Assembly (NCBI RefSeq): GCF_003725695.1
Contig: NZ_RJSE01000009.1
Location: 248,001 to 312,000, forward strand
Length of the DNA: 64,000 nt
Direction of reading: 5' to 3'
Origin: Nocardioides marmoriginsengisoli
Lineage (GTDB): Bacteria > Actinomycetota > Actinomycetes > Propionibacteriales > Nocardioidaceae
Shown: positions 8,257-31,987 of the stretch, piece by piece
Layout of the letters: each line of letters starts with the position of its first letter
Numbering within the stretch: the stretch's first letter is position 1
The notes under the pieces: model-generated
Seen by the model: only the letters and a program-made list of their open reading frames with translations
What the model was told of the DNA's origin: nothing
Database searches by the model: none
Program-made: the position numbers and the translations under genes

Positions 8257-8323
8257 CTTCGCGTCTTAGTGGTGTTCCTCACACCGTGTTATCGAGGACG
8301 GTCGATCGACGTCAACAGACCTT

Positions 8324-9460
8324 GTGCACCCCACGACGAAATCGAGCAGACGAACCTCGCTCCTGGCGACCGCAGCCGTAGCCGCCGGAACCCTCCTGAC
8401 CACACCTCCGGCGGACGCCCGTACGCCGTGGGTCTCCCTCCGCGCGCCGGCGAGCGTGACCAGCGGCCAGCCTGTGCTGGTGCGCGGAAAGGTACCCGGC
8501 CACGTCTCGAAGGTGCGGCTCGAGCGGCGGATCTCCGGCCGGTGGGTCCTGGTCAAGCGGGTCGCCGCCCGGAACGGCCGCTACCTGACCTGGGTGCGTC
8601 CGGTCAGCACCACCCGGTACCGGGCCGCGCTCCCGCGCCGATCAGCGACCTCCCGAGCCCAGGTGGTGCGAGTCGTCCGGCCGGCCACCGACACGTGCGG
8701 GGTGCGGCCGACCAAGCCGGACGGATCCCTGTGGAGCTGCACCCTTCACGACGAGTTCACCGGCACGTCCTTGGACCGTACGACGTGGGTGCCGCAGACG
8801 AACTTCGCCTCCGGTGTCCGGGCAGCCCATGCTTGCTACCGGGACGACCCGTCGGTGGTCAGCCAGTCCGGCGGCTCCCTGAACCTCAGCGTGCGCAAGG
8901 TCAGCGACCCGGTCACCTGCAGCTTCGCCGGCCTGAGCGGGCCCACCCACCTCATCGCCGGCGGCGTGATGACCTATCACCTGTTCAGCCAGCAGTACGG
9001 ACGGTTCGAGGCCCGGATCAGGACCACCGCGACCACGGACCCGGGCCTGCACGAAGCGTTCTGGCTCTGGCCAGACGACCGGTTTCCCTCCACAGCGGTC
9101 TGGCCGTACGCCGGGGAGATCGACATCAGCGAGACCTACTCCTCGCACCCGAGCCTCTCGATCCCGTTCCTGCACTACGCCGCCGACGCCCGGGGAAGCG
9201 TCCCCGGAACGAACACCGCGTGGGACTGCACGGCTGCCCGTGGCGAGTGGAACACCTACACCCTGGAGTGGGGTCCGTCCCGGATCGAGATCAAGGTGAA
9301 CGGCAGGACCTGCCTGGTCAACACCTCCGGCGACGCTGCGTTCCAGAAGCCGTACCTGGTCGTGCTGACCCAGCTCCTCGGAGTCGCGGGGAACGCGTAC
9401 GACGGGCGGGCGCCTTTGCCGGCGACGATGAACGTGGACTACCTGAGGGTGTGGAGGTAG
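8324..9460 (+). CDS. Secreted GH16 glycoside hydrolase (beta-glucanase type)
   Basis: The 378-aa protein starts at GTG with a signal peptide (SRRTSLLATAAVAAG to ADA). Residues ~35-125 form a beta-rich, Ig-like module. Residues ~140-378 are a GH16 jelly-roll, with the catalytic EIDISE motif at about residues 265-270 (nucleophile Glu, assisting Asp, acid/base Glu) and the C-terminal MNVDYLRVWR strand typical of the family. The substrate is probably a beta-1,3 or mixed-linkage glucan, but GH16 also includes agarases and carrageenases, so it is not fixed by the sequence. It is 67 bp downstream of the cyclase gene and may have its own promoter. Confidence 0.9.
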   Translation: MHPTTKSSRRTSLLATAAVAAGTLLTTPPADARTPWVSLRAPASVTSGQPVLVRGKVPGHVSKVRLERRISGRWVLVKRVAARNGRYLTWVRPVSTTRYRAALPRRSATSRAQVVRVVRPATDTCGVRPTKPDGSLWSCTLHDEFTGTSLDRTTWVPQTNFASGVRAAHACYRDDPSVVSQSGGSLNLSVRKVSDPVTCSFAGLSGPTHLIAGGVMTYHLFSQQYGRFEARIRTTATTDPGLHEAFWLWPDDRFPSTAVWPYAGEIDISETYSSHPSLSIPFLHYAADARGSVPGTNTAWDCTAARGEWNTYTLEWGPSRIEIKVNGRTCLVNTSGDAAFQKPYLVVLTQLLGVAGNAYDGRAPLPATMNVDYLRVWR

Positions 9461-9480
9461 GGCTGTCCGGCGAACGGCCC

Positions 9481-9855
9481 CTACCGGACCGCCGCGCGAA
9501 AGGTGACCTTCCAAGACCGGGCGATCATTGCGACACAGGCAAGCAATGCTGCGAGATACGCCAGCGCCGTATCGGGATCCTTGTCCAGGGCCGAAACCCC
9601 CCAGGCCACCGCCAACACAAGGCTCCCGAGAGCGAACGCGAGTTCGACCGCCCGAAGTCCGAGAACTGTGCCCTTCAACCGGCGATACGACCGCTCGGAG
9701 CCATCAGGTGCTCCAGGTGGAGGCGGCGCGACCACGGCAACCAACAGGCTCCCGACCATCAGCAGCGCGGCGAGTTCGACGTTGTCACGCACCACCAACA
9801 CGCCAACGACCACCAAGACTCCGAGTTGGATCCCGAACAGGCTGTAGCTCACCAT
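9481..9855 (-). CDS. Small hypothetical membrane protein
   Basis: The 124-aa protein has about four hydrophobic segments: LFGIQLGVLVVVGVLVV, LAALLMVGSLLVAVV, VELAFALGSLVLAVAWGV and LAYLAALLACVAMIA. A Pro/Gly-rich cytoplasmic loop lies between the second and third. No catalytic or family motif is recognised. It converges with the GH16 gene and sits before the tRNA terminator. Codon use is somewhat less GC-rich than the neighbours. Confidence 0.65.
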   Translation of the reverse strand: MVSYSLFGIQLGVLVVVGVLVVRDNVELAALLMVGSLLVAVVAPPPPGAPDGSERSYRRLKGTVLGLRAVELAFALGSLVLAVAWGVSALDKDPDTALAYLAALLACVAMIARSWKVTFRAAVR

Positions 9856-20538: not shown

Positions 20539-20586
20539 GGGTATCTCCTTGGTGGGACGTCGATGGTTGAATGCTCAACAGAGACA

Positions 20587-20619
20587 GTATCTATTTGATA
20601 CCGAGCACTTCAACGTGCT
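20587..20619. promoter_or_regulatory. Candidate HxlR operators in a divergent promoter
   Basis: Two inverted repeats lie in an AT-richer patch between the oxidoreductase and hxlR-type genes: GTATC-N5-GATAC (20587-20601) and AGCAC-N6-GTGCT (20604-20619). A further GATAC half-site follows at 20623-20627. Position and symmetry suggest autoregulation by the HxlR protein. Confidence 0.5.
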
Positions 20620-20630
20620 ATAGATACCTC

Positions 20631-21008
20631 ATGGAAACTATTGCGTCTTCCAGCGCCTTCCCGCCGGACGCGTTCGCGAAGGACTGCGCCTCCCGGGTGG
20701 TGCTCGACAGGATCGGCGACCGCTGGACGGTGCTGGTCGTCGGTGCCCTGGCGGACGGCCGGCTGCGGTTCTCCGAGCTCCGCACCCGGATCGAGGGCAT
20801 CACCCCCAAGGTGATGACGCAGACCCTGCGCGCGCTGGAGCGCGACGGCGTCCTGACCAGGACGGTGTACGCCGAGGTCCCCCCGCGGGTCGAGTACGAG
20901 CTGACCGATCTCGGCCGGGACCTGCTGGTGCCGATCGACGCGATCCGGCACTGGGCCGAGCAGCACGCGTCCCGGATCGTGGCGAACCGCGAGGTGTACG
21001 ACCGGTAG
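20631..21008 (+). CDS. HxlR-family transcriptional regulator
   Basis: Starting at the ATG at 20631 (METIASSSAF), the protein has 125 aa. It has the family's N-terminal Cys (FAKDCASRVV), GDRWTVLVVGAL, a winged helix with RIEGITPKVMTQTLRALE, and the wing VPPRVEYELTDLG. That single Cys is the redox sensor in some family members. It probably represses itself and the divergent oxidoreductase gene. Confidence 0.92.
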   Translation: METIASSSAFPPDAFAKDCASRVVLDRIGDRWTVLVVGALADGRLRFSELRTRIEGITPKVMTQTLRALERDGVLTRTVYAEVPPRVEYELTDLGRDLLVPIDAIRHWAEQHASRIVANREVYDR

Positions 21009-21018
21009 CCTCACCGCC

Positions 21019-22512
21019 ATGACTGACACCGGATGGTTCGCGTACGCACCGGACGGACCGGAGGCGCCGGTCCCGCCGAAGCGCCGCGTCCCGGTCGCCG
21101 CGATCGTCGCCGTCCTGGTGGTGCTGGCCCTGATCGCCGGTGGTCTGGTCGCCTTCCTCGTGCTCAAGGACGACGGCGACGAGCCGAGCTACCCGAAGAC
21201 CTGGGACTCCCGGATCGCGCCGTACGTGAAGATCGTCGAGAAGGAGCGCCGCCTCACCTTCAAGCACCCCGTCGAGGTCCGCTTCCTCGACGCCGCCGCG
21301 TTCGAGAAGACCGTGAAGAGCGAGGACAAGGACCTCGACAAGAAGGAGCGTCGCGAGATCGATGAGGTCACCTCCCTGTTCCGGGCCTTCGGCCTGATCG
21401 ACGGCGACGTGGACCTCTTCGAGGCCTTCAACGACGCCTACGGCTCCGGCACGCTGGCGTATTACTCGTTCGACGACCAGCGGATCACCGTCAAGGGCAA
21501 GGAGCTCTCCCTCGCCGTCCGCGCCACGCTCGTCCACGAGCTGACCCACGCGCTCCAGGACCAGCGCTTCGACATCGGCAACCGGATGGACCGGCTCTCC
21601 AAGGAGACCGAGAGCGGGAAGCCCACCACCGCGTACGACGCCCTCGAGGCGATCGTCGAGGGCGACGCCGAGCGCACCGCGGACCTGTACCGGAAGACCC
21701 TCTCCGCCGCCGACCAGAAGGCCCTGGCGAAGGCCGAGGAAGAGGACCAGGGCGACGCCCAGAAGGGCCTGGAGAAGGTCCCCGGCGTGGTGGTCTCGCT
21801 GATCAGCGCGCCGTACGCGCTCGGCCAGGCACTGACCGAGGCGGTCGCCGAGGAGGACAAGGACGACGTCGACGACCTCTTCCGCGACCCGCCGACCAAC
21901 GACTCCGTCCTGGTCGACCCGATGGCCGCCGCCACCGGCGACACGGACATCGCCGACGTCGCCGTACCGGGCCTGGAGGACGGCGAGAAGAAGTTCGACT
22001 CCGGCCAGATCGGCGCGCTGACGACGTACCTGATGCTGGCCCAGCGGATCCCCGTGCTCGACGCGCTCGCCGCGACCGACGGCTGGGACGGCGACGCGTT
22101 CGTCGCGTTCACCCGCGACGACGTCAAGTGCGCCCGGGTCTCCTACGCGACCAAGGACGACGCCGCGACGGGTCGGCTGCTCGCGGCGCTGCGGACCTGG
22201 ATCGCCGCGGTGCCGGGCTCGAAGGCCGAGGCCACCCGTGACGGCGACCGGATCGTGTTCGAGTCCTGCGACCCAGGCACCTCGGCCGAGCTCGGGAAGG
22301 ACCACTCGACCACCGCCGTCGAGCTGGTCGCGACGCGGGCGTACCTGGGGGTCGGCGTGCTCCAGGCGGGAGCCAACGCGGACACCGCGAAGTGCTTCGC
22401 GCACCAGATGATCGAGCAGTTCCCGGTTGCCGAGCTCCAGAACCCGAACCTCGGCAAGGACGACCCGGCCGTGGTCCGGAAGATCCAGAAGATCGCGACC
22501 GACTGTCGCTGA
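21019..22512 (+). CDS. Membrane-anchored putative zinc metallopeptidase
   Basis: The 497-aa protein has a short cytoplasmic N-terminus and one transmembrane helix (VPVAAIVAVLVVLALIAGG), then a large Lys/Asp-rich extracytoplasmic region. VHELTHALQDQRF contains HELTH at 173-177, the zinc-binding HExxH site, and IVEGDAERT (~214) offers the downstream Glu expected of a gluzincin. The substrate is unknown and no named family is claimed. It starts 10 bp after the hxlR-type gene, and the polytopic membrane protein gene follows after 40 bp. Confidence 0.72.
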   Translation: MTDTGWFAYAPDGPEAPVPPKRRVPVAAIVAVLVVLALIAGGLVAFLVLKDDGDEPSYPKTWDSRIAPYVKIVEKERRLTFKHPVEVRFLDAAAFEKTVKSEDKDLDKKERREIDEVTSLFRAFGLIDGDVDLFEAFNDAYGSGTLAYYSFDDQRITVKGKELSLAVRATLVHELTHALQDQRFDIGNRMDRLSKETESGKPTTAYDALEAIVEGDAERTADLYRKTLSAADQKALAKAEEEDQGDAQKGLEKVPGVVVSLISAPYALGQALTEAVAEEDKDDVDDLFRDPPTNDSVLVDPMAAATGDTDIADVAVPGLEDGEKKFDSGQIGALTTYLMLAQRIPVLDALAATDGWDGDAFVAFTRDDVKCARVSYATKDDAATGRLLAALRTWIAAVPGSKAEATRDGDRIVFESCDPGTSAELGKDHSTTAVELVATRAYLGVGVLQAGANADTAKCFAHQMIEQFPVAELQNPNLGKDDPAVVRKIQKIATDCR

Positions 22513-22552
22513 ACCCCGGTACGACGGGCCGCCGACCTCTAGGTTGGCTGCC

Positions 22553-23599
22553 ATGACCGAGTACCTGGAATCACCCGGCGAGCGCCCCGGCCGGACCTTC
22601 ACGATCACCTTCGACCTCTCCCGGCTGCCCACGGCGGCGACCGCGGCCGGCGTCGCCCTGGTCTCCGCGGCCGTGGTGGTCTCGGCGATGTACACCCGCA
22701 ACACCGGCGACCTGGACACCTCGAACTTCGTGATGGGCGCGCTCTCCGCGCTCGGCCTGCTCGGGTTCGCGGTGGTGGCGCACCTGGTCGTCCCGGACGC
22801 CGAGCGCCGGGCGGGCCTGGTCTCGTGGCCCGGTGCGGCCGGCGCGGCCGGACTCGGCGTGATGCTCAGCGTGCTGATCTCGAACGACGACGTCTCGATC
22901 TACGCCGGCGCTGGTCTCGCTCTGGTGCTGTCGGTCGCCGGCTACCTCCTCACCCGGGCCGCGCCGTTCGTGCTCAGCTCCCTCGCGGCGCTGGTCGTCC
23001 TCTACGCGAAGCTGTTCGACGACGTCATCGACGAAGGGGACGAGGGGTCGCAGTTCATCGTCATCGGCGCCGCCGTGATGATCTTCGTGATGGTCGCGAC
23101 CGCCGCCGGCTGGTTGCTGCCGGCGACCCGTGAGCTCACCGGAATCGTCGTCGGCATCGCCGGGCTCGCGACGATGGCGGGGGTCCTGATGTCGCTCGGC
23201 ACCATCCGCGCGATGACGGTGGCCTTCTCCGAGTTCCGGGTCTCGGGTTTCGACGACGAGACGGACTTCGCGGAGATGGACGACCTCCCCGGCGGACACT
23301 TCTTCTCCGGGGTCGGCGAGGATCCGTACCAGAACGACGTCTACATCGTCCTGCTGTTCTGCCTCGCCCTGGCGCTGTTCTGGTTCGGCTGCGCGCTGAG
23401 CACCGGCCACGTCGGCTTCCGGCTGCTGGTCGCGGGCAGCGCGGTCCTGATCATCCCGATCGCCACGATCGCGCTGATGGCGAACCGCCCGACCTGGTGG
23501 GAGGTCGGCGCGTGCGCGCTCGGCGGTCTGGTGCTGATCGGGGCGGCGGCCCGGGCACGCCGGCCGGAGACGCCGGCGGAAGTGCCGGTAGCTCCCTAG
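22553..23599 (+). CDS. Polytopic membrane protein of unknown function
   Basis: The 348-aa protein starts at the ATG at 22553 (MTEYLESPGERPGRTF). It has about nine hydrophobic helices. One long hydrophilic loop at ~225-265 is acidic (FDDETDFAEMDDLPGGHFF). No transporter or enzyme motif is recognised. It follows the metalloprotease gene closely, so the two may act together in the envelope (inference). Confidence 0.75.
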   Translation: MTEYLESPGERPGRTFTITFDLSRLPTAATAAGVALVSAAVVVSAMYTRNTGDLDTSNFVMGALSALGLLGFAVVAHLVVPDAERRAGLVSWPGAAGAAGLGVMLSVLISNDDVSIYAGAGLALVLSVAGYLLTRAAPFVLSSLAALVVLYAKLFDDVIDEGDEGSQFIVIGAAVMIFVMVATAAGWLLPATRELTGIVVGIAGLATMAGVLMSLGTIRAMTVAFSEFRVSGFDDETDFAEMDDLPGGHFFSGVGEDPYQNDVYIVLLFCLALALFWFGCALSTGHVGFRLLVAGSAVLIIPIATIALMANRPTWWEVGACALGGLVLIGAAARARRPETPAEVPVAP

Positions 23600-23618
23600 G
23601 AAGTTTCTCGTCACCAGG

Positions 23619-23652
23619 TGTCCCGGATCCCTCGCAGCCGGACATCTGGCTG
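23619..23652 (+). promoter_or_regulatory. Shared ECF-type promoter motif, copy 1
   Basis: TGTCCCG, then 13 bases, then CGGACATCTGGCTG. The same elements at the same spacing recur at 27355-27388 before the other secreted-protein gene of this cassette. The two-block layout resembles an ECF sigma-factor promoter (-35 and -10). It ends 48 bp before the GTG of the gene at 23701. Confidence 0.6.
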
Positions 23653-23700
23653 ATGAGCACGTCCCATCCGAGGGGCGCGCCCGAGCTCTAGGGGCAACCA

Positions 23701-24123
23701 GTGGCTACTTCCACGCAGGTACGACGGATCGCGGCTCTGACCATGGGGATGGGCATCCTCCTCGCCACCGGGTTGTCGCCGGCCGGCGCGACCGTCAAGA
23801 CGGGCACGATCAACGACATCGACTGCAACGCGACCTCGGTCAAGACGGGGGTCTCGCTCGTCCAGGGCCACAGCGGCACGTTCAAGATCAAGCAGAACTC
23901 GGCGACCGACGACCGTCGTACGGACTGGACCGCGCGGTCGTCGAACGGCAACGACCTCGGTTACAAGCACACCAGCACCGGGGACACGGTCACCTGGAAC
24001 GGCGTGCTGCCGAGCACCTACACCGTGCGCGCCCGCAAGTACGTCCCGAGCGACTGCTCCCCGCTGAACCCGTTCAGCGACGGCAGCTACGACGTGACGT
24101 ACACGGCCACCTCGACCAACTAG
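23701..24123 (+). CDS. Secreted 140-aa protein of unknown family
   Basis: The protein has a clear signal peptide (VRRIAALTMGMGILLATG, cleavage near GATVKTG). The mature ~105 residues are rich in Ser, Thr, Asn and Asp and look like a beta-sandwich (KTGVSLVQGHSGTFKIKQ, GDTVTWNGVLPSTYTVRA). Two cysteines (DIDCNAT and PSDCSP) could form one disulfide. It is the first gene of a tight five-gene run ending in an ABC permease and has a promoter motif shared with the I36 gene. It may be an exported effector or the sensor substrate of the system; no homology is claimed. Confidence 0.78.
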   Translation: MATSTQVRRIAALTMGMGILLATGLSPAGATVKTGTINDIDCNATSVKTGVSLVQGHSGTFKIKQNSATDDRRTDWTARSSNGNDLGYKHTSTGDTVTWNGVLPSTYTVRARKYVPSDCSPLNPFSDGSYDVTYTATSTN

Positions 24124-24127
24124 GCCG

Positions 24128-24640
24128 TTGCGAACCAAGCGGCTGGCGATCGCGGCGTGCGCCCTGGCGTGCGCCGCGTTCGCGGCCGGATGCGGCAGCG
24201 ACGAACCGGCCTCGCTGCGGGCGGACGCACCGGTCTTCCAGGGCCTCGACGGCAAGGTCGTCGCGGAGGTGCTGGCGAACCCGGACGCGAGCCGCAAGAT
24301 CGCCGAGGAGGAGACCGACTCCGCGCGCGACAGCATGGCGCAGGGCATCGTGATCAACTTCGTGACCTGCCGCGAGGTCGCCGCGGCGTACCGGTCGTGG
24401 CTGACCACGGGAGTCCGCCCCGAGCTCGCGCCGGTGCCGGCGGTGCGCTCGCCCCAGGAGCCGTCGTACACGGACGCCCGCGGGATCCGCGAGCACCTGG
24501 TGGCGCGCATCCTCAGCGGTGACCCGAGCCAGCTGCGGGCCTATCTCGAGGGACCGTCGTCGTGCGGCCACTGGATCCCGGCGGTTCCCGGAGACGTCTC
24601 CGGACCGACGATCGAAGACTCCCTGAAGGAGGTGCAGTGA
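24128..24640 (+). CDS. Putative lipoprotein of the export cassette
   Basis: The 170-aa protein from a TTG start has a lipobox (AAFAAGCGSD). The mature part is helical and charged, with single Cys residues in FVTCREVAA and PSSCGHWIP. No known domain is recognised. It begins 4 bp after the secreted-protein gene, and the adaptor gene overlaps its stop by 4 bp (GTGA). It may help recognise or hold the exported protein at the outer face of the membrane (inference). Confidence 0.75.
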   Translation: MRTKRLAIAACALACAAFAAGCGSDEPASLRADAPVFQGLDGKVVAEVLANPDASRKIAEEETDSARDSMAQGIVINFVTCREVAAAYRSWLTTGVRPELAPVPAVRSPQEPSYTDARGIREHLVARILSGDPSQLRAYLEGPSSCGHWIPAVPGDVSGPTIEDSLKEVQ

Positions 24641-25521
24641 CCCAGCGCCTCGGGGCGCTGGGGGTCCTGGTTGTGCTTGCGTTCATGTCGGGATGCGCAA
24701 GCACAACCAGGTCCGACGACGGTCCGGGGTCTGCGGACTCGGAGTCTCCGGCCACGGCACCTCCCACGATCAGGCGGGCCGACCTGAAGCTGGAGTACAC
24801 GCTGGACGCGGTCACCGCGCGCAGCGACCGGATCGCCATCGTCACCAACGACCAGCTGCGGTTCGTGCCCCGCGGCGGCCCGGACCAGCGCACGGTCCAG
24901 GCCGGAACGCCGGTCGGCCGGCTGGTGGTGTCGCAGGCCGCGCGAGACGCGCTGTCCGCGCCCGGGGCCGGCGGGGCAGCTTCCCGGCTCGCCGGACTGG
25001 AGGCGCAGCAGCGCGAGGTCCGGGCTCCGGTCGACGCCGTCCTGCACGCGTCCGGGCGGGCGCCCTCCTTCGCCGCGCCCGGCCTGGACGTGGTCGCGGC
25101 GCTGACGCCGATCCAGTACCTGCGCTACCTCTCGATGCCCTTCTCCGGCACCGCCCAGGTCGAGACCGTGCTCGGCCCGACGACGGTCCGCTGCGCCGCC
25201 CTGTGGAGCACCCCCGTCGAGGCGACGAACGAGAGCGCCGCCGCCCTGCACTGCCGGCTCCCCGCCGGCGTCCAGACCGCACCGGGGCTGCGGTCCACGG
25301 TGACGATGCGGTCGACCGAGCTGAAGGACGTCCTGCTGGCCCCCAACCTCTCCATCGGGTACGACGAGCGCACCGACCGCTACTCCGTCTCGGTGATCCG
25401 GGACGGCGACGTAGTCCGGGTGCCCGTCGAGGTCGGGGTGACCGACGGCGTGGTCCGGGTGATCCGGGGAGCCGTCCGGGCCGGCGACCAGCTCGCTCCC
25501 CCGGTGACGGCGGATCCGTGA
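24637..25521 (+). CDS. Lipoprotein with MacA-like adaptor features
   Basis: From the GTG at 24637 the protein has 294 aa, with a signal peptide and lipobox (VLAFMSGCAST). Its layout resembles a periplasmic adaptor (HlyD/MacA type): an N-terminal strand, a helical stretch (ASRLAGLEAQQREVRAPVD), then beta-rich segments ending with VRVPVEVGVTDGVVRVIRG, which looks like the membrane-proximal domain. It precedes the ATPase gene with a 4-bp GTGA overlap. The adaptor assignment is moderate, from shape and context. Confidence 0.75.
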   Translation: MTQRLGALGVLVVLAFMSGCASTTRSDDGPGSADSESPATAPPTIRRADLKLEYTLDAVTARSDRIAIVTNDQLRFVPRGGPDQRTVQAGTPVGRLVVSQAARDALSAPGAGGAASRLAGLEAQQREVRAPVDAVLHASGRAPSFAAPGLDVVAALTPIQYLRYLSMPFSGTAQVETVLGPTTVRCAALWSTPVEATNESAAALHCRLPAGVQTAPGLRSTVTMRSTELKDVLLAPNLSIGYDERTDRYSVSVIRDGDVVRVPVEVGVTDGVVRVIRGAVRAGDQLAPPVTADP

Positions 25522-26210
25522 CCGGGTACGCCGCCGAGCTCCTCGACGTCTCCGTCGCCTACGCCACCGACTCGGAGAGCGTGCTGGCGCTGAACTCGGT
25601 CAGCTTCGCCTGCCGCCCGGCCAGCTCGACCTCCATCGTCGGCCGGTCGGGCAGCGGCAAGTCCACCCTGATCTCGGTGCTGTCCCTGCTCCGCGAGCCG
25701 ACCGTCGGCAAGGTGCTCCTCGACGGCGAGGACGCGGCGCTGATGAGCGACGCGAACAGGTCGGTGCTCCGGTCCGCACGGATCGGCATCGTCTTCCAGG
25801 CGTTCCACCTCGAGCCGTCGCTGACGGTGCTGCAGAACGTGATGCTCGGGTGGAACTTCCGGCACGCCGGCCTGAGCCGGTCCCAGGCAGTCGCCCGCGC
25901 CACCGACGACCTCGACTCGCTGGGCATCGCCGACCTGGCCGGCCGACGGCCCAACGCGCTCTCCGGCGGTCAGCGCCAGCGCGTCGCGATCGCCCGCGCG
26001 GTGTTCGCGCGTCCCACCCTGCTGGTCGCCGACGAGCCGACCGGCAACCTGGACGAGGAGACTGCCGGCGCGGTCGCGGAAAAGCTGCTCGCCCTGCCCG
26101 GGCAGTACGGCACCGCGGTCGTGATCGTCACCCACGACCAGGCGATCGCGCGGCTGGCGGACACCCGGCTGGAGCTCGTCCGAGGTCGGATCCGCGATGC
26201 TCGGGCGTGA
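25518..26210 (+). CDS. MacB/LolD-type ABC transporter ATPase
   Basis: The 230-aa protein starts at GTG (VTGYAAELLDVSVAYA). It has Walker A VGRSGSGKST, the Q-loop FQAFHLEPSLTV, signature NALSGGQRQRVAIARA, Walker B LLVADEPTGNLD and switch His VIVTHDQ. DEPTGNLD is typical of the LolD/MacB/FtsE subclass, which pairs with FtsX-like permeases, as here: the permease gene overlaps it by 14 bp. Confidence 0.95.
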   Translation: MTGYAAELLDVSVAYATDSESVLALNSVSFACRPASSTSIVGRSGSGKSTLISVLSLLREPTVGKVLLDGEDAALMSDANRSVLRSARIGIVFQAFHLEPSLTVLQNVMLGWNFRHAGLSRSQAVARATDDLDSLGIADLAGRRPNALSGGQRQRVAIARAVFARPTLLVADEPTGNLDEETAGAVAEKLLALPGQYGTAVVIVTHDQAIARLADTRLELVRGRIRDARA

Positions 26211-27348
26211 GGCCGGTTCGACCGTCAGGCTCGCGCTCCAGCTAGCTCGGGCGGCCCGGGTCCGGCTGCTCCTCTCGGTGCTGCTGGTCGCGATCGCCAT
26301 GACGGTGTTCCTGATCGTCTCCCAGCTCTCCCAGATCGGAACCCGCGGTCTCGACGACGCGATCGACTCCGAGTCCGGGGCCGAGGGGTCGTACTCGGTC
26401 GAGACGCAGACGACCTTCGGGCTGGGGCGCACCGCCTTCGTCGAGCGCGTCGTGCACCGGTTGCAGCGGATCAGCAGCGCGCCGGTCAGCTACGTCGTCG
26501 GCTACCCCGACATCCGGCCCGAGTGCCCGCCGTACGACGTGCTCGGGTCGGGGATGGTCCGCTTCGTCTACCGGGCCGACGGGACGCCGTACCCGCTCCG
26601 GTACGGCGGCTCGCTCCCCGGCGACACCAAGGTCTGCCTCGCCGGTGCCGCGGTGCCGGCGCGAGCGATCTTCGTCCCGTCGGCCGCGGACAAGAACCGC
26701 TGGGGTGACGGGCTGACGCTCGCCCCGGCGTACGAGTCGTCCGCGGCTCTGATGTCCTCGGAACCGATCGCCTACCGGTTCGTCGTCACGACCGGCCAGC
26801 CGGACAGCATCCCGGCAATCCGGTCCGCGCTGCAGGCCGAGCTCGGCACGGACGCGACGAAGTTCGGCGTCACCGTCGACGAGGTGACGGTCACGATCGG
26901 CCGGCTCGACCGCGGTGAGCAGGTGCGGGCGGCGAGCGCCGGCATCAAGACCATCTTCGGGGTGATCGGGTGGGGCGTGCTGATCCTCGGGGCGCTCGGC
27001 CTCCTGGTCTCGCAGCTGATCGTGGTGCGGGACCGGATGTGGCTCTTCGGGCTGAGCCTGGCGCTGGGGGCGCGGCGCGTCCACGTCGCGCTGCTGGTCG
27101 GTGTCGAGGTGCTCGCCACCGTCGTCCTCGGCGTCGCGTCCGCGATCGTGCTCGCGCTCGCCTCCCAGCCGCTCGCGGACCGGGTCGCGCAGGCGACCTT
27201 CGACGCGGACGCCGACCTGGTCAACCCGGCCGCCATCCCCCGCCTGGTCCTCGGCTCCGTCGTGGTGCTCGTCGTCGCCTCGGCCTGGCCGGTGGTCCGG
27301 GCGACCACCCAGGACCCCCTCGACGTCCTCGAGCCGAAGCTCTCCTAA
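26197..27348 (+). CDS. FtsX/MacB-like ABC permease
   Basis: The 383-aa protein has one N-terminal helix (LLLSVLLVAIAMTVFLIVSQ), an extracytoplasmic domain at ~45-240 containing a cysteine pair (IRPECPPYD, TKVCLAG), then three C-terminal helices with the FtsX-like LALGARRVHVALLVGVEVLA. This is the classical MacB topology, a mechanotransmission ABC that acts on substrates outside the membrane. It completes the ATPase/adaptor set. Confidence 0.9.
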   Translation: MLGREAGSTVRLALQLARAARVRLLLSVLLVAIAMTVFLIVSQLSQIGTRGLDDAIDSESGAEGSYSVETQTTFGLGRTAFVERVVHRLQRISSAPVSYVVGYPDIRPECPPYDVLGSGMVRFVYRADGTPYPLRYGGSLPGDTKVCLAGAAVPARAIFVPSAADKNRWGDGLTLAPAYESSAALMSSEPIAYRFVVTTGQPDSIPAIRSALQAELGTDATKFGVTVDEVTVTIGRLDRGEQVRAASAGIKTIFGVIGWGVLILGALGLLVSQLIVVRDRMWLFGLSLALGARRVHVALLVGVEVLATVVLGVASAIVLALASQPLADRVAQATFDADADLVNPAAIPRLVLGSVVVLVVASAWPVVRATTQDPLDVLEPKLS

Positions 27349-27354
27349 GACGGC

Positions 27355-27388
27355 TGTCCCGATCGGGCTCCTGCCGGACATCTGACTG
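27355..27388 (+). promoter_or_regulatory. Shared ECF-type promoter motif, copy 2
   Basis: TGTCCCG, then 13 bases, then CGGACATCTGACTG, one base different from copy 1 at 23619 in the second block. It ends 2 bp before the ATG at 27391, so a transcript from it would have almost no leader. Leaderless mRNAs are common in actinobacteria. The ECF sigma gene at 27927 is the natural candidate for recognising it. Confidence 0.6.
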
Positions 27389-27390
27389 TC

Positions 27391-27876
27391 ATGACCCGCA
27401 TCCGATTCCTGCTCGCACCGACCCTCGCCGCCCTCGCGATCGGTGCCGGCGCCATCCCGGTCGGCGCCACCACGGCGCCCGCTCCGGCAGCTACCGCGAC
27501 CGCCCAGTCCTATCTCCGCGACCACCCCGGTGGCGTGCTGCGCACCGACCACGAGGTCGTCTACCCGGACGGCAGCGGGTTCGTGGCGGTCCCCGCGGAC
27601 ACGATGTCGCTGAGCGAGTGCTCGAGCGGGCGGTTCTGCATGTGGACCTCGGCGTCGTACACCGGCTCGTTCTCCTACGTGACCGGCAGCGGCGTGACGA
27701 AGCCGCTGAGCACGACCGTGAAGTCGTTCTGGAACAACCGCGGCCAGGCGGCCCGGCTCTACAACAACGCGGCAACGTCGTCGACCTGCTACGCGGCCGG
27801 CGACAAGAAGTCCTCGCTGACGGTTGGCTACCAGCAGCCGGCGAAGGTCCAGCTCTCCGCAGGAGCATCATGCTGA
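27391..27876 (+). CDS. Secreted peptidase-inhibitor family I36-type protein
   Basis: The 161-aa protein has a signal peptide (FLLAPTLAALAIGAGAIPVGATT). After a ~40-residue propeptide-like part, the C-terminal ~80 residues show CSSGRFCMWTSASYTG, VKSFWNNRG, and a spaced pair TCYAAGDK and GASC. This is the SMI/I36 layout of small disulfide-bonded beta-gamma-crystallin-like proteins of actinobacteria. Known relatives inhibit metalloproteases, and a metalloprotease gene lies at 21019. It carries the same promoter motif as the secreted protein at 23701. Confidence 0.82.
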   Translation: MTRIRFLLAPTLAALAIGAGAIPVGATTAPAPAATATAQSYLRDHPGGVLRTDHEVVYPDGSGFVAVPADTMSLSECSSGRFCMWTSASYTGSFSYVTGSGVTKPLSTTVKSFWNNRGQAARLYNNAATSSTCYAAGDKKSSLTVGYQQPAKVQLSAGASC

Positions 27877-27926
27877 ACTAGTCGCTCGCGAATGGCATCC
27901 TTGGCCCATGCTGCGGAGGGGCTCGG

Positions 27927-28436
27927 ATGGACGCGCGCGAGTTTGAGAAGGTGTTCTGGGTGCTGCAACCCCCCTTGCTCAGGTTTGCGCGCAACCAGCT
28001 CGACCCGGCCGGGGCCGAGGACGTCGTCGCCGAGACCCTGACCACGCTCTGGGGCAAGGACCTGGCCTTCCCGGAGTCCCCGGAGGAGGAGCGCGGCCTG
28101 CACGCCCTGGCCTACCAGGTGCTGACCGGGCACATCCGCAACGAGTACCGGTCCCGGCGCCGCCGGAAGGCTCTCGCCGAACGACTCGTCGCCCAGCCCG
28201 TGAAGGTGGCGGCCACCGGGCGGTCGGCGACGGATGTGGACGACGAGGCCCGCGTCACCTACCTGCTCCAGCAGCTCTCCGTCGACGATCGCGAGGTGAT
28301 CCTCTTGTTCAACGCCGGTTTCGACCTCGGCGACACCGCGCGGATCCTCGGGTGCTCGACCGCGGCGGCCGCCAAGCGCCGTACCCGGGCGCGCGGCAGG
28401 TTGCGCGAGATCGTGGACAAGGAGGCCCGGGAATGA
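27927..28436 (+). CDS. ECF RNA polymerase sigma factor
   Basis: The 169-aa protein has region 2 at ~15-85 (PAGAEDVVAETLTTLWGK, YQVLTGHIRNEYRSRRRR) and region 4 at ~105-160 (LSVDDREVILLFNAGF, DLGDTARILGCSTAAAAKRR). A good ribosome site (GGAGGGG) precedes the ATG at 27927. The next gene overlaps by 4 bp and encodes a membrane protein of the type that accompanies these sigma factors. It sits 50 bp after the I36 gene, so it may direct the two shared promoter motifs of the cassette (inference). Confidence 0.92.
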   Translation: MDAREFEKVFWVLQPPLLRFARNQLDPAGAEDVVAETLTTLWGKDLAFPESPEEERGLHALAYQVLTGHIRNEYRSRRRRKALAERLVAQPVKVAATGRSATDVDDEARVTYLLQQLSVDDREVILLFNAGFDLGDTARILGCSTAAAAKRRTRARGRLREIVDKEARE

Positions 28437-29563
28437 GCAACCTCCGACCCAACGACGACCCGGAGCTGCGCAAGCTCCTCGACTCGATCGGGCTGCACGA
28501 GAACGTCGTACCGGAGTCCGATCCGGAGTCGACCGCTCGGGCGCAGGCGATGCTCGGGCGCATCCTCGAGCAACCTCGCGGCCGGGGCCAGGGGCGCCGC
28601 TTCGTCCGGCCTGACCTGCGGCTCCGTGTCGGCGGTCGGCGTACCGTGCTGGGTCTGCTCGCCGCCGGGGTCGCCTGCGCGGTGATCGCGATCGCGCTGG
28701 TGGTCGTCGAGCCGGGTGCGGGACCGCGGCCCGCGGCCGCGGAGACCCCGCCGATGCTCACGTTCTCCGGCGTGGACGGGGATCACCTCCCCGGCGCGGG
28801 CGCACCGGCGCGGGCGCTGCTGGAGAACCTGGCTGGGCGCGCGGAGGGGCAGCCCCCGGCGGCGGACCTGCCGGTGCAACGGGTCGTCCTGGATGCCTGG
28901 TGGTCGTCGACGGATCCCGCCGATCGTGACCGCGGACCCGCCACCGTGCTGGTCCCGCGGCACGTCGAGGTCTACCAGCTCCCGGACGGGACCCGGCGCT
29001 CGATCGAGCGCCGCGGCCGACCGCTGGACGCCGACGGCCGGGCCACGGACCAGCCGGGCTCGTGGAGCGCGGTGCCGTCGACCACCGACGAGACCTTCAC
29101 CAACGACCTGGGCGCGGACTACCCCGGCACGCTGCCGGAGTCGGTCCCCGCTTTGCGGAAGCTGCTGGCTCCCCCGTACGGCTGCGGCGGCGTCGCCGGC
29201 GGGTGCCTGCTCGGTGCCGTCAACGACCTCTTCACCGGCTACGTGGTGGCACCATCCGTGACCGCGCGCCTCTGGCGCCTGCTCGCGACCGAGCCGACGA
29301 TCACCACCCTCGGTACGACGAAGGACCGGTTGGGCCGGGACGCGGTCGTGCTCGTGGCCGACGCGACCGACCCCACCCAACGGACGCTCGTCCTGATCGA
29401 CCCCGACACCGGGAGGTACCTCGGGTCGGAGTCGATCCTGGTGAAGCCGAACAAGGATCTGGGGTTCAAGCCGCCGGCGGTGGTCGCGTTCACCGCGCTC
29501 GCGAGCGCGGACCGGGTCGAGCAGGGAGAGGTGCCGGACAGCCGGACCACCACGCGGTACTGA
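28433..29563 (+). CDS. CU044_5270-type membrane protein, probable sigma-factor partner
   Basis: The 376-aa protein starts at the ATG overlapping the sigma-factor stop (ATGA). It has a ~70-residue cytoplasmic part (LRKLLDSIGLHENVVPESDPE), one transmembrane helix (RTVLGLLAAGVACAVIAIALVVVE), then an extracytoplasmic region with a Cys pair (PYGCGGVAGGCLLG) and beta-rich C-terminus. This family regularly follows ECF sigma genes in actinobacteria and is taken to act as anti-sigma factor or sensor, although no zinc-binding ASD motif (HxxxCxxC) is present. Confidence 0.85.
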   Translation: MSNLRPNDDPELRKLLDSIGLHENVVPESDPESTARAQAMLGRILEQPRGRGQGRRFVRPDLRLRVGGRRTVLGLLAAGVACAVIAIALVVVEPGAGPRPAAAETPPMLTFSGVDGDHLPGAGAPARALLENLAGRAEGQPPAADLPVQRVVLDAWWSSTDPADRDRGPATVLVPRHVEVYQLPDGTRRSIERRGRPLDADGRATDQPGSWSAVPSTTDETFTNDLGADYPGTLPESVPALRKLLAPPYGCGGVAGGCLLGAVNDLFTGYVVAPSVTARLWRLLATEPTITTLGTTKDRLGRDAVVLVADATDPTQRTLVLIDPDTGRYLGSESILVKPNKDLGFKPPAVVAFTALASADRVEQGEVPDSRTTTRY

Positions 29564-29584
29564 GCGGCGATGGTTCGGACCTGG

Positions 29585-29600
29585 TCAGTAGTACCAGGGG
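29585..29600. repeat. Left att-like 16-bp direct repeat
   Basis: TCAGTAGTACCAGGGG is identical to 32767-32782, the end of menB. It lies 22 bp after the stop of the sigma-partner gene and is noncoding here. This is the expected leftover of the displaced original 3' end after integration into menB. Confidence 0.65.
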
Positions 29601-29765
29601 AAGCACGGCAAGCTCAGCGGGTGTTGGTAGTCATCGACGGCGATGTGCCGCTGACCTGCGCAAACGTGATGGTGGGCGTTGGCGGTCGACGGGCTCCGAC
29701 GACTCTGCTGCCACGTTCTTGCCACGCACGCGTGCGGCTGATCGGGCGTCACTACCCTGTTCGTC

Positions 29766-30467
29766 ATGCCCGTGCCCAAAGTCGTCGACTCCCTACGTGG
29801 GTGGGTCGGGTTCAAGTCTCTCCAGACGCGCTGGGCGATCAAGAGCCGCTGGCGGCGAGTGCGCGGTCACCACGGCGCGTTCGAGCACGGCGAGGTCAGT
29901 ATTCGTGCAGTGCAGCTGACCGAGCTGTGGGAGCGCACGTGGCCCAGGGCCGAACCGCTCGGCTACGTGCTGCGAGTCGAATACGCCGATCAGTGGGTCC
30001 GGTTCCATAGCCTTCCCGAGTCGAAGCGATACGCCGAGAACGAGGTGGAGTACGACGAGATCCTCCGGCGGCATCGCACCGTCCTGCGAGAGCTCCAAGG
30101 CTCCGCCGGCACCGCCGACTTGTGCGTAATCGCTGCGGACTGGGGTTGGCGGGATTCGGCCGCAGGCTGGTCAAGGCGAAAGGTGTCCGGCGCGTGGCCA
30201 TGGCGCATTGGCCAAGCGGACGACGACCCAGACACCGGACGCAACTACTTCTGGGCGGCGTCAGGACTGTCTGACGCCGAGGTCGACTCTCTTCTGCTGG
30301 CGGCGGCAGACGACCAAGGCCGCTTCGTCATCGGCGCTCCCAATCTCGAATGGCTCTACTGCCCTTACGACGGTGGCGCCGACGTTGTACTTCCAAGTGC
30401 GGTCGCGCGCGACGGCCTCAAGGCCCGTCATGCCGGCTGGTTGTCTTCGTACCCAGGCGGTCTCTGA
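29766..30467 (+). CDS. DUF3885-like protein in the island
   Basis: The 233-aa protein is soluble, with no signal peptide. It has RFHSLPESKRYAENEVEYDE, a central acidic region, and a C-terminus PYDGGADVVLPS ... WLSSYPGGL, which resembles DUF3885, a family frequent among toxin-immunity gene sets. The match is from memory of the pattern, so it is tentative. Codon use is less GC-rich than the flanking genome, supporting transfer. The N-terminal ~35 basic residues may not belong to the domain, and the true start could be further in. Confidence 0.68.
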   Translation: MPVPKVVDSLRGWVGFKSLQTRWAIKSRWRRVRGHHGAFEHGEVSIRAVQLTELWERTWPRAEPLGYVLRVEYADQWVRFHSLPESKRYAENEVEYDEILRRHRTVLRELQGSAGTADLCVIAADWGWRDSAAGWSRRKVSGAWPWRIGQADDDPDTGRNYFWAASGLSDAEVDSLLLAAADDQGRFVIGAPNLEWLYCPYDGGADVVLPSAVARDGLKARHAGWLSSYPGGL

Positions 30468-30481
30468 AGCTGACAATGCGG

Positions 30482-31309
30482 CTATGCACCAGCCGCGATG
30501 CGCTGCACGAACTCGTTGACCCAGGCCACGGCGGCACCCACGTCAGGCAGTACGTCTATGTCCTCGATCGCGGCCTCATACAGCGTGTCCCAACCGGCAC
30601 CAGTCTCGATGGTCGGCGGCCATAGCTGCTGGCGCCGGTACGCGAAGAGCCGGACGCACGTGGCCTTGACCTGCGCGAGGTCGAGGTCTTCGCCCTTGTC
30701 GAGCAGCTGAAGGTCGACGAGGTCGCGCGATCGCTCGCTGCCAGGGTCCGAGACCGCATGCAGCTTCTGGGCGACCTGGTGATCGGCCCGCATCACCGGC
30801 ACCGGCTTGGGCACTTCGAGGCCAACCTCGGTGAAGAGCTGGGCCAAGCCGTCCGCGAGCTGGTACTCCGGTTCCTCCGCATCGCCGATCTCGTTGTGTC
30901 CGAGCTCGAACTTCACGGTGCACCAAGGTCGGCCGCGGTAGTCAAGCTTCACGTTGAACGGCTGCATGACGTACGCCGTTGGCACGCCGGTAGGCCGCGG
31001 TGCAGCCCTCTCGATTAGCCTGCCGGTGAAGCCCGCCCATCCGGCAGCCAGCGAGTCCTCGAAGTCGCTGCGGAACCGAGCCAGCGGCTGCACGCGAGCC
31101 GCGTCGAGATCCTGGGTGAACCGAGTGCCGCGGCCGTAGCGAAGCGCCATCGCGCTGCCGCCCTTGATGGCTCCCTCGGGAAGCATTTGGCCGACCACGA
31201 CGAGCGCCATGCCGACGCGTCGCCGAACGGCGAGTTCCTCGCTGCTCTCGAGGTTGCGGATGCGCTGCTCCAACGACCGGACGCTGTTCGGCACATCGGC
31301 GTAGCTCAC
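30482..31309 (-). CDS. abiEii: AbiEii-family nucleotidyltransferase toxin
   Basis: From the GTG at 31309 the protein has 275 aa. The nucleotidyltransferase core reads AIKGGSAMALRYG, then GTRFTQDLDAAR, which gives the GGS loop and the paired Asp residues for metal and NTP. The C-terminal half has QVAQKLHAVSDPGSERSRDL, as in AbiEii/AbiGii. These toxins transfer nucleotides, and relatives modify tRNA 3' ends. Its start overlaps the antitoxin stop by 4 bp (GTGA), ensuring coupled synthesis. It provides phage defence by abortive infection (family knowledge). Confidence 0.9.
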   Translation of the reverse strand: MSYADVPNSVRSLEQRIRNLESSEELAVRRRVGMALVVVGQMLPEGAIKGGSAMALRYGRGTRFTQDLDAARVQPLARFRSDFEDSLAAGWAGFTGRLIERAAPRPTGVPTAYVMQPFNVKLDYRGRPWCTVKFELGHNEIGDAEEPEYQLADGLAQLFTEVGLEVPKPVPVMRADHQVAQKLHAVSDPGSERSRDLVDLQLLDKGEDLDLAQVKATCVRLFAYRRQQLWPPTIETGAGWDTLYEAAIEDIDVLPDVGAAVAWVNEFVQRIAAGA

Positions 31310-31848
31310 GATCGAAGTTCCTTCCTGACCCGCTGCCACTCCTTGGTGGTCATCAGACCTTCCTTTCGCGCTTCCTCAGCAGCATCCATCAGCCGGCTCC
31401 GCTCGATGCGCCCGCGGCATTCGAGGATCGCGTCCGCAACACGTTGCGACCTCAGGCCTTCATACAGCGTGGTGGTGACATCGTCCTTCACCCGCGTCAG
31501 GTCGATGAACGGCGGCAGCTTCGGCCGCGTGCGCTTCCGAACGGCGACCCTGATCCGTCGAGGGTTCACATCGGCGAGCCCGAACAAGGCGAGCACCGAG
31601 TCTCCATGGAGGTACGACCCCTCACCCGCGCGTAGTAGCGCCTCGGCGAACTGATCGAACGCGCTGGTAGGAGCATCCGGCACTCGATAGAGCCCATAGG
31701 CGACGTTGTTCAGACCGCCACGAGCAGCAAGCTTGGGAAGCTCGACGGCGGGAACCCCGGCCTCGGCCGCCTGCTTGGTCGTGACGTAGCCGTACTGATC
31801 GAGCGCGATCTCGCGCACGATGTCCCGGTACTTCACCTCAGCGGCCAT
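31306..31848 (-). CDS. abiEi: AbiEi-family antitoxin / autorepressor
   Basis: From the ATG at 31848 the protein has 180 aa. Residues ~8-60 form the winged helix (IALDQYGYVTTKQAAEAGV), followed by the AbiEi core (GLYRVPDAP, HGDSVLALFGLADVNPRRIRVAV) and the conserved TTTLYEGLRSQRVADAI. It neutralises AbiEii without stable binding in studied type IV systems and represses its own promoter through inverted repeats. A near-perfect inverted repeat lies exactly at this start codon, supporting ATG 31848 over an upstream ATG at 31962. Confidence 0.92.
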   Translation of the reverse strand: MAAEVKYRDIVREIALDQYGYVTTKQAAEAGVPAVELPKLAARGGLNNVAYGLYRVPDAPTSAFDQFAEALLRAGEGSYLHGDSVLALFGLADVNPRRIRVAVRKRTRPKLPPFIDLTRVKDDVTTTLYEGLRSQRVADAILECRGRIERSRLMDAAEEARKEGLMTTKEWQRVRKELRS

Positions 31849-31883
31849 GTCACAACTATACCGAAAACGGTAGTGTTGTGACA
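31848..31883 (-). promoter_or_regulatory. abiE promoter and operator inverted repeat
   Basis: Two 16-bp arms, TGTCACAACTATACCG and CGGTAGTGTTGTGACA, match at 14 of 16 positions around an AAAA spacer. On the minus strand TATAGT stands 6 bp before the ATG, and CTGTCA lies 18 bp further upstream. RNA would start at or near the A of ATG, giving a leaderless message. A repressor on the repeat would cover both promoter boxes, as expected for AbiEi autoregulation. Confidence 0.78.
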
Positions 31884-31891
31884 GAGTCAGC

Positions 31892-31987
31892 TTAGCTCTT
31901 GAGCAGCAAGTAGTCCGTTCCGCAGTCGGGACAAGTCGAGCGGTCGATGGTCGACTCGCCATCCAGTCGGAGATCGCTAACGGTCAT
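31892..31987 (-). CDS. 31-aa CPxC peptide, translationally coupled
   Basis: The ATG at 31987 overlaps the stop of the 202-aa gene (ATGA). The peptide begins MTVSDLRLDGES and ends STCPDCGTDYLLLKS, with a single zinc-knuckle-like CPxCG. One knuckle could bind zinc only as a dimer or with a partner. It ends 44 bp before the abiEi start. The tight overlap favours real translation, but its size makes this uncertain. Confidence 0.45.
   Translation of the reverse strand: MTVSDLRLDGESTIDRSTCPDCGTDYLLLKS

What the first reader, a model, noticed from the sequence alone, without database searches (positions are those of the whole stretch)
23619..29563. Self-contained export cassette with its own ECF sigma factor and a shared promoter motif
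Two secreted proteins (an unknown 140-aa protein and an I36-type protein) flank two lipoproteins and a MacB-like ABC transporter. Both secreted-protein genes are preceded by TGTCCCG, exactly 13 bases, then CGGACATCTG. An ECF sigma factor and its membrane partner follow at once. This predicts one regulon: the sigma factor drives secretion of both proteins and the transporter that handles them. I know of no described system with this composition.
Basis: partly seen in the sequence, partly recalled or inferred. Interest (0 to 1): 0.75.

Follow-up and report, generated by a model that had tools for sequence, protein, structure and literature searches.

The report
Sigma factor with two local promoters
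An actinobacterium carries a small self-controlled switch (a sigma factor and its membrane partner) that very probably turns on two neighbouring promoters, one for its own operon and one for an adjacent secreted-protein and transporter operon; in related bacteria each of the two sets is mostly found without the other.

Summary
TGTCCCG-N13-CGGACATCTG lies exactly before both secreted-protein genes and nowhere else in the 4.46-Mb genome. The locus is two modules. Module A (140-aa secreted protein, two lipoproteins, ATPase, FtsX-type permease) is rare: five loci found, window included. Module B (I36 protein, ECF sigma, CU044_5270 membrane protein) stands without A in other genomes of the family; I36 precedes sigma in 12 of 14 such loci. 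Only the window and G561 have both. Module B's promoter place is fixed: KGTRA at -34 from the I36 start in 10 of 10 loci of one sigma clade, RACAKC at -14/-13 in 4 of 4 I36 loci of the window's clade. In G481 the equivalent motif also occurs just twice in the genome: before I36 and before neighbouring small secreted proteins. So the motif is best read as the sigma factor's promoter, with A recruited as a target. That the transporter exports the secreted proteins is not supported: both look Sec-exported, and module A's secreted gene is damaged in 3 of 5 loci while the transporter stays open. In G561 the motif is not recognisable. Nothing was tested experimentally.

The parts
23619..23648 (+). 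P1: predicted ECF promoter of the module A operon, TGTCCCG-N13-CGGACATCTG
   Evidence: one of two exact copies in the genome; same -35/-10 spacing as the promoters of kin
23653..23691 (+). possible 12-codon upstream ORF right behind P1 (leaderless only if transcription began at 23653; the spacing at P2 predicts about 23655)
   Evidence: read by eye; inference only
23701..24123 (+). sec140: 140-aa protein with signal-peptide-like start, module A
   Evidence: N. zeae homologue 56% identical overall; no Pfam or NCBIfam family over cut-off
24128..24640 (+). lipoprotein 1 (lipobox-like AAGC, by eye), no known family
24637..25521 (+). lipoprotein 2, adaptor-like (MacA/HlyD class, weak)
   Evidence: TIGR01730 E 7e-4; Foldseek of a low-confidence model (pLDDT 47) to CusB/AcrA/MacA-type adaptors
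25518..26210 (+). ABC ATPase of the LolD/MacB class
   Evidence: TIGR02211 185.7 bits, below its cut-off of 307.75
26197..27348 (+). FtsX-domain permease
   Evidence: PF02687 46.9 bits, cut-off 25.5; one TM near the N-terminus, three at the C-terminus by hydropathy
27355..27384 (+). P2: predicted ECF promoter of the I36-sigma-partner operon (I36 probably leaderless)
27391..27876 (+). I36-family secreted protein, module B
   Evidence: PF03995 35.4 bits, cut-off 21.1
27927..28436 (+). ECF sigma factor
   Evidence: TIGR02937 46.4 bits, cut-off 42.9; tree
28433..29563 (+). CU044_5270-family membrane protein, presumed anti-sigma factor (73 residues, one TM at 74-92, about 280 residues; orientation inferred)
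   Evidence: (NF038083 102.9 bits, cut-off 100)

Best explanation
The locus is a two-module regulon. Module B encodes an ECF sigma factor and its presumed one-TM anti-sigma factor, co-transcribed behind a secreted I36 protein from promoter P2, so the system feeds back on itself. The two TGTCCCG-N13-CGGACATCTG sites are this sigma factor's -35/-10 promoters; the second, P1, puts the neighbouring five-gene module A (a small secreted protein, two lipoproteins and an ABC transporter) under the same control. Shown by sequence: gene sets, exclusivity and geometry of the motif, separate existence of the modules, repetition of the layout in G481. Inferred: that this sigma factor reads the motif, that CU044_5270 holds the sigma factor until an outside signal, that the I36 message is leaderless. 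Weaker inference: module A serves envelope defence or competition, its transporter acting as efflux or immunity pump for a secreted product rather than as that product's exporter.
For: Only two exact motif sites in the genome, both here. Module B without module A: I36 directly before sigma in 6 of 20 CU044_5270 regions fetched (of 34 matches listed, own included) and in 12 of the 14 loci found with the window-type partner profile (L145 and L120 lack it). Promoter place: KGTRA at -34 in 10 of 10 I36 loci of one sigma clade, RACAKC at -14/-13 in 4 of 4 I36 loci of the window's clade, 0 of 10 and 0 of 4 the other way round. Window, G481 and G491 share one spacing (8+14+6 bases) between -35 start and -10. 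In G481 SGTTAGAT-N14-RACAKC occurs exactly twice in the genome, before I36 and before a neighbouring stretch with two small secreted proteins and lipoproteins; once in G491; 0 in G000, G466, G561, G496; reversed-pattern control 0 in all six. With each locus's own two blocks (6 of 7 and 6 of 8 bases, same spacing), a second copy outside the module's coding sequence is found in 3 of 14 loci: window, L149 and L111, in L111 just behind the partner gene (null 0.40, 0.07 and 0.00 per locus). The window's sigma clade is monophyletic in the tree (100/98). The motif is absent from the three module A loci without sigma. ECF41 is a published precedent for an adjacent gene as sole target (PMC3426412, abstract and passages seen).
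Against: No expression data. In G561, the only other locus with A and B together, the motif is absent at up to 3 mismatches and no NGT-N19-RACAKC site exists on the coding strand of its 13 kb; only the -10-like part stands before I36. That loose pattern is itself unspecific: in window 21001-30000 it has 3 further sites, in L150 3, in L149 1. By plain 31-base identity the second window copy (20 matches) does not exceed the null maximum of 20 within 14 kb, because the spacer is free; the case rests on the two blocks. A second copy is seen in only 1 of 10 loci of the other clade (L111); L148 has one weak site on the opposite strand with a null of 0.70. The 6-of-7/6-of-8 criterion was set after I had seen the candidates. 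The G481/G491 pattern was derived from the sites that it finds; only the lack of further sites is independent. I36 start codons were chosen by me. Module A's function rests on gene decay and remote resemblance.
Confidence: 0.7

Rival explanations
1. The two sites are operators of a dimeric transcription factor: TGTCC-N16-GGACA is an inverted repeat two helical turns apart, so a repressor or activator rather than the sigma factor links the two promoters.
For: Exact dyad arms in both copies; TGTCC/GGACA pairs with other spacings also lie near the I36 start in L144 and L150; an HxlR-type regulator gene lies at 20571-21005, 2.6 kb before P1.
Against: The element sits at the -35/-10 place relative to the I36 start, as in kin whose elements are not such palindromes (KGTRA; SGTTAGAT...RACAKC); an N16 gap is long for a dimer site (general knowledge); no regulator gene other than the sigma factor lies between P1 and the end of module B.
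Confidence: 0.15
2. Module A is a bacteriocin-like toxin with its immunity pump: sec140 is the secreted antagonist, the lipoproteins and ABC transporter protect the producer. (A functional reading that can hold together with the best explanation.)
For: sec140 was found at E<1e-9 only beside this transporter (2 of 296 genomes, own included; five further genomes with matches at E 7e-4 to 7e-3 were not followed up). Its signal sequence or N-terminal half is lost or out of frame in 3 of 5 loci (G696; G561 and G128), while lipoproteins, ATPase and permease stay open there, the pattern expected when a costly weapon is lost and protection is kept.
Against: No bacteriocin family matched; the mature part is as conserved as the permease (69% and 68% by tblastn to N. 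zeae), unlike a fast-changing toxin; the damage could partly be assembly error.
Confidence: 0.35
3. The transporter exports or releases sec140 and I36.
For: Same predicted regulon and, for sec140, same operon.
Against: Both proteins start with signal-peptide-like stretches, so Sec would suffice (by eye, no signal-peptide program was run; sec140 reached no TM threshold); the transporter stays open without an intact secreted gene; none of the 12 I36-sigma loci has a module A gene of the window's type beside it.
Confidence: 0.1
4. Chance neighbourhood: two unrelated operons with a coincidental sequence likeness.
For: A and B occur apart in most loci found with either.
Against: 0 of 2000 shuffles give the bipartite match; A and B are also together and in the same order in G561.
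Confidence: 0.05

Closest known systems
ECF41-type sigma factors and their adjacent target (PMC3426412; abstract and passages seen)
   Same: A sigma factor whose only detected target is the neighbouring transcript, with a -35 beginning TGTC (TGTCACA-n16-CGTC).
   Different: Here the -10 is GACATCTG-like, there is a separate membrane partner and the 169-aa sigma factor has no long C-terminal extension, and two promoters are predicted.
ECF sigma / one-TM anti-sigma pairs (classical membrane-anchored anti-sigma factors; general knowledge)
   Same: Co-encoded with a 4-base overlap, short first part, single TM, long second part.
   Different: The partner is CU044_5270 (NF038083); 0 papers of the library hold that name.
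MacAB / LolCDE / DevA-class ABC transporters with adaptor protein
   Same: ATPase of this class, FtsX permease, adaptor-like lipoprotein.
   Different: Separate ATPase and permease, no MacB_PCD match (the G466 permease has one), an adaptor with only weak MacA likeness.
Lactococcin 972-type loci (secreted bacteriocin with ABC transporter); recalled, not fetched
   Same: A small secreted protein next to a MacB-class ATPase; the ATPase matches TIGR03608 at 140.5 bits.
   Different: TIGR03608 cut-off (254.85) not reached; no bacteriocin family match for sec140.

Membership tests
ECF sigma factor | sigma-70 regions 2 and 4 only | tested here: met
   TIGR02937 46.4 bits over 42.9; PF08281 30.8 over 25.7; PF04542 18.8 bits, below its cut-off of 24
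ECF sigma factor | recognises a -35/-10 pair before its own operon | tested here: inconclusive
   position and geometry conserved; no transcription data
Membrane anti-sigma factor (CU044_5270) | family profile over cut-off, single TM, gene paired with sigma | tested here: met
   102.9 bits over 100; TM 74-92; a sigma profile hit in 20 of 20 CU044_5270 regions fetched
Membrane anti-sigma factor (CU044_5270) | binds and holds the sigma factor | not testable with these tools
   needs a binding assay
MacB transporter | fused ATPase-permease with MacB_PCD periplasmic domain | tested here: not met
   separate genes; PF12704 not matched at E<=1
MacA/RND adaptor | profile over cut-off | tested here: not met
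   TIGR01730 18.7 of 94.9 bits, PRK11578 15.4 of 342 bits; fold likeness from a low-confidence model only
Lactococcin 972 system | bacteriocin precursor family and TIGR03608 ATPase over cut-off | tested here: not met
   no bacteriocin family; TIGR03608 140.5 of 254.85 bits
Peptidase inhibitor I36 | PF03995 over cut-off | tested here: met
   35.4 bits over 21.1
Peptidase inhibitor I36 | inhibits a protease | not testable with these tools
   needs an enzyme assay

The most novel reading that the evidence does not exclude
A previously undescribed class of ECF switch (I36-sigma-CU044_5270) in which the secreted I36 protein, made from the leaderless first gene of the sigma operon, is a protease inhibitor that damps release of the sigma factor by protecting the outer domain of the membrane partner from cleavage, and in which the sigma factor's -35 specificity changes quickly while neighbouring weapon or defence cassettes are recruited by acquiring a copy of the current promoter.
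Probability: 0.15. Interest if true: 0.75.

Novelty: new variant of a known kind. Interest (0 to 1): 0.5.

Why it matters
ECF sigma factors are common bacterial signalling proteins, and many groups have no known target or signal (general knowledge). This locus and its kin give a natural series in which sigma factor and promoter seem to have changed together (KGTRA at -34; SGTTAGAT; TGTCCCG), a promoter that can be predicted to the base, and a case of a neighbouring operon apparently captured by a copy of that promoter. It also ties an I36 inhibitor-like protein to an ECF system, which makes a protease-inhibitor feedback loop directly testable.

Tried and rejected
Rejected: the motif as a duplicated attachment or target site (the 13-base spacers differ). 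Rejected: one indivisible cassette. Led nowhere: permease search of plasmids (no match); the first family search with the single permease gave five partial matches at E 1.7e-5 to 8.8e-4 besides the own one, which I did not take for module A; solved-structure search for sec140 (two matches, best E 0.26); its model has pLDDT 57 and resembles FN3/Ig domains without any match at E<=0.001; the adaptor model has pLDDT 47. Generic relatives of the sigma factor (40 regions fetched of 77 matches listed, the window's own included): an ATPase hit lay somewhere in 6 of 40, not in the module A manner; the one looked at gene by gene (L086) is an amino-acid-type ABC operon by its frames.

Literature: nine searches of the held open-access library. 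Four found 0 papers: ECF/MacB/peptidase inhibitor/actinobacteria, CU044_5270, Inhibitor_I36 with sigma factor, family I36 with sigma factor. Searches listed papers on ECF factors, bacteriocins, genomes or promoter mapping; one search listed one Streptomyces ECF-deletion paper (listing only). The ECF reclassification paper (doi 10.1093/nar/gkaa1229) is not held, so no ECF group number was assigned. Of PMC8999054, PMC9964109 and PMC3426412 only found passages were seen (parts of the abstract among them for the last two).

Full report
WHAT IS THERE. Eight genes lie on one strand from 23701 to 29563: sec140, lipoprotein 1, adaptor-like lipoprotein 2, ABC ATPase, FtsX permease, I36 protein, ECF sigma factor, CU044_5270-family membrane protein. 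The first five are 4 bases apart or overlap; sigma and partner overlap by 4 bases. The motif TGTCCCG-N13-CGGACATCTG is exact at 23619 and 27355 and nowhere else in the 4.46-Mb assembly. The bipartite match between the two intergenic stretches arose in 0 of 2000 shuffled pairs.

TWO MODULES. A permease profile found module A in 4 of 341 genomes of the family at E<=1e-12 (own, G561, G695, G696) and in 1 of 24 of the genus at E<=1e-15 (own); the single protein found it in 2 of 394 of the class at E<=1e-6 (own and G128). That makes five module A loci. In L017/L023 (N. zeae), L024 (G696) and L016 (G128) the five genes stand in the same order with no I36, sigma or partner hit in the fetched region; in L025 (G561) all eight stand in the window's order. 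Module B without module A: of 34 CU044_5270 matches listed in 24 of 120 family genomes, own included, 20 regions were fetched; a sigma hit is present in 20 of 20 and an I36 gene directly before it in 6 of 20. A profile of the window-type partner found 14 loci in 13 of 49 genomes of genus g19; 12 of 14 have the I36 gene before sigma (L145 and L120 do not). In none of these 12 did sec140, lipoprotein 1 or a permease or adaptor of the window's type give a hit; L112 and L148 have an ATPase hit about 0.8 kb and 2.2 kb from the module, on the opposite strand, and L150 has a transporter operon of the G466 type on the opposite strand.

THE PROMOTER. Anchored at the I36 start codon, KGTRA lies at exactly -34 in 10 of 10 loci of one sigma clade (L111, L112, L114, L115, L117, L119, L144, L146-L148), and RACAKC at -14 or -13 in 4 of 4 I36 loci of the window's clade (window, L149, L150, L025); within 40 bases neither occurs in the other clade. 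Start codons were chosen by me; for nine of the ten loci one search lists every in-frame start, and KGTRA stands at -34 of just one of them. In the window, G481 and G491 the -35-like and -10-like blocks have one spacing (8+14+6): TGTCCCGA/TGTCCCGG, CGTTAGAT, GGTTAGAT, each followed by 14 bases and RACAKC. Genome-wide, SGTTAGAT-N14-RACAKC occurs twice in G481 (before I36; and before two small secreted proteins followed by lipoproteins), once in G491 (before I36), and not in G000, G466, G561 or G496; the reversed-pattern control is 0 in all six. So G481 repeats the window's plan with other letters and another target. A two-block scan of all 14 loci finds a second copy in the window, in L149 and in L111 (at 7803, directly behind the partner gene, null 0.00 per locus; what follows it was only listed as open frames), a weak one on the opposite strand in L148 (null 0.70), and in the window the near-palindromes of the two sites themselves. 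In a tree of 30 sigma sequences that I selected, the window, G561, G466, G481 and G491 form one clade (100/98), and the ten sequences of the other I36-linked clade fall in one group with L120 and L145 (100/100). The simplest reading is a sigma factor whose promoter recognition changes along with its promoters.

WEAK POINTS. In G561 the -35-like block is not recognisable, although A and B stand together; there the sec140 gene is short of its N-terminal half and the I36 gene has its start and its domain in different frames and an in-frame stop, so regulation may be decaying too. Plain 31-base identity does not single out the second window site. The inverted repeat TGTCC-N16-GGACA leaves a dimeric regulator possible. 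In nine of the ten loci of the other clade no second promoter copy on the module's strand was seen.

MECHANISM. Shown by sequence: gene order, overlaps, motif, geometry, distribution. From knowledge of the families: an ECF sigma factor held by a one-TM partner is freed by an outside signal and starts transcription at its own promoter. Inferred: P2 makes I36, sigma and partner (I36 message leaderless), P1 makes module A. For module A, the transporter genes stay open while the secreted gene has lost its signal sequence, its N-terminal half or its frame in G696, G561 and G128, which argues that the transporter is not merely its exporter; efflux or self-protection is more likely. sec140 has no known family; its low-confidence model is a beta sandwich.

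OTHER LINKS TO TRANSPORTERS. In G466 a sigma factor of the same clade and its partner follow a lipoprotein-adaptor-ATPase-permease operon of another type. In G491 a second sigma gene, followed by a membrane protein that resembles CU044_5270 by eye only (no profile hit), precedes such an operon on the strand opposite to module B. ECF pairs beside such transporter operons may therefore recur, but 40 generic sigma relatives did not show it as a rule.

NOVELTY. An ECF sigma factor with a strictly local regulon is a known kind (ECF41 precedent). The combination I36-sigma-CU044_5270, its fixed promoter place and the recruited secreted-protein/transporter operon were not found described in nine literature searches of the open-access library, which lacks most subscription papers. 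I file it as a new variant of a known kind.

Noticed in passing
window 30485-31339 (-) and 31309-31962 (-): AbiEii-type nucleotidyltransferase (PF08843, 60.2 bits) with an AbiEi_4-like gene beside it (24.3 bits, just under the cut-off of 25): a probable type IV toxin-antitoxin pair just downstream.
   Followed up: partly
window 21019-22512 (+): Protein with a TM-like stretch near its start (by eye) that matches NF038145 Hvo_1808 family surface protein at E 3.8e-34 but below the cut-off (118.7 of 200 bits).
   Followed up: no
L149 about 7536-9850 on the reverse-complemented strand (G481): Two related small secreted proteins and a lipoprotein distantly like the G466 lipoprotein (28% by tblastn) follow a second copy of that genome's sigma-promoter pattern; the first secreted protein and the lipoprotein have no Pfam match over cut-off, the second secreted protein was not scanned.
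   Followed up: partly
L150 1-4650 (-) (G491): A second sigma gene and a following membrane protein precede a lipoprotein-adaptor-ATPase-permease operon, divergent from the I36-sigma-CU044 operon.
   Followed up: partly
L111 7803-7828 (+) (G480): A second copy of that locus's I36 promoter blocks (7 of 7 and 6 of 8 bases, same spacing) directly behind the CU044_5270 gene; target gene unclear.
   Followed up: partly
L115 near 5604-5640 (-) (G498): A divergent site with GGTGAAT and GGATGAAC like the I36 promoter lies just upstream of it on the other strand (19 of 31 identities); it fails the two-block criterion.
   Followed up: partly
L144 and L150, upstream of I36: TGTCC/GGACA inverted pairs with short spacings overlap the region just before the start codon; a possible extra operator.
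   Followed up: no
L025, L024, L016: Different damage to the sec140 gene (N-terminal half lost; signal sequence deleted; signal and domain in different frames) beside open transporter genes.
   Followed up: partly
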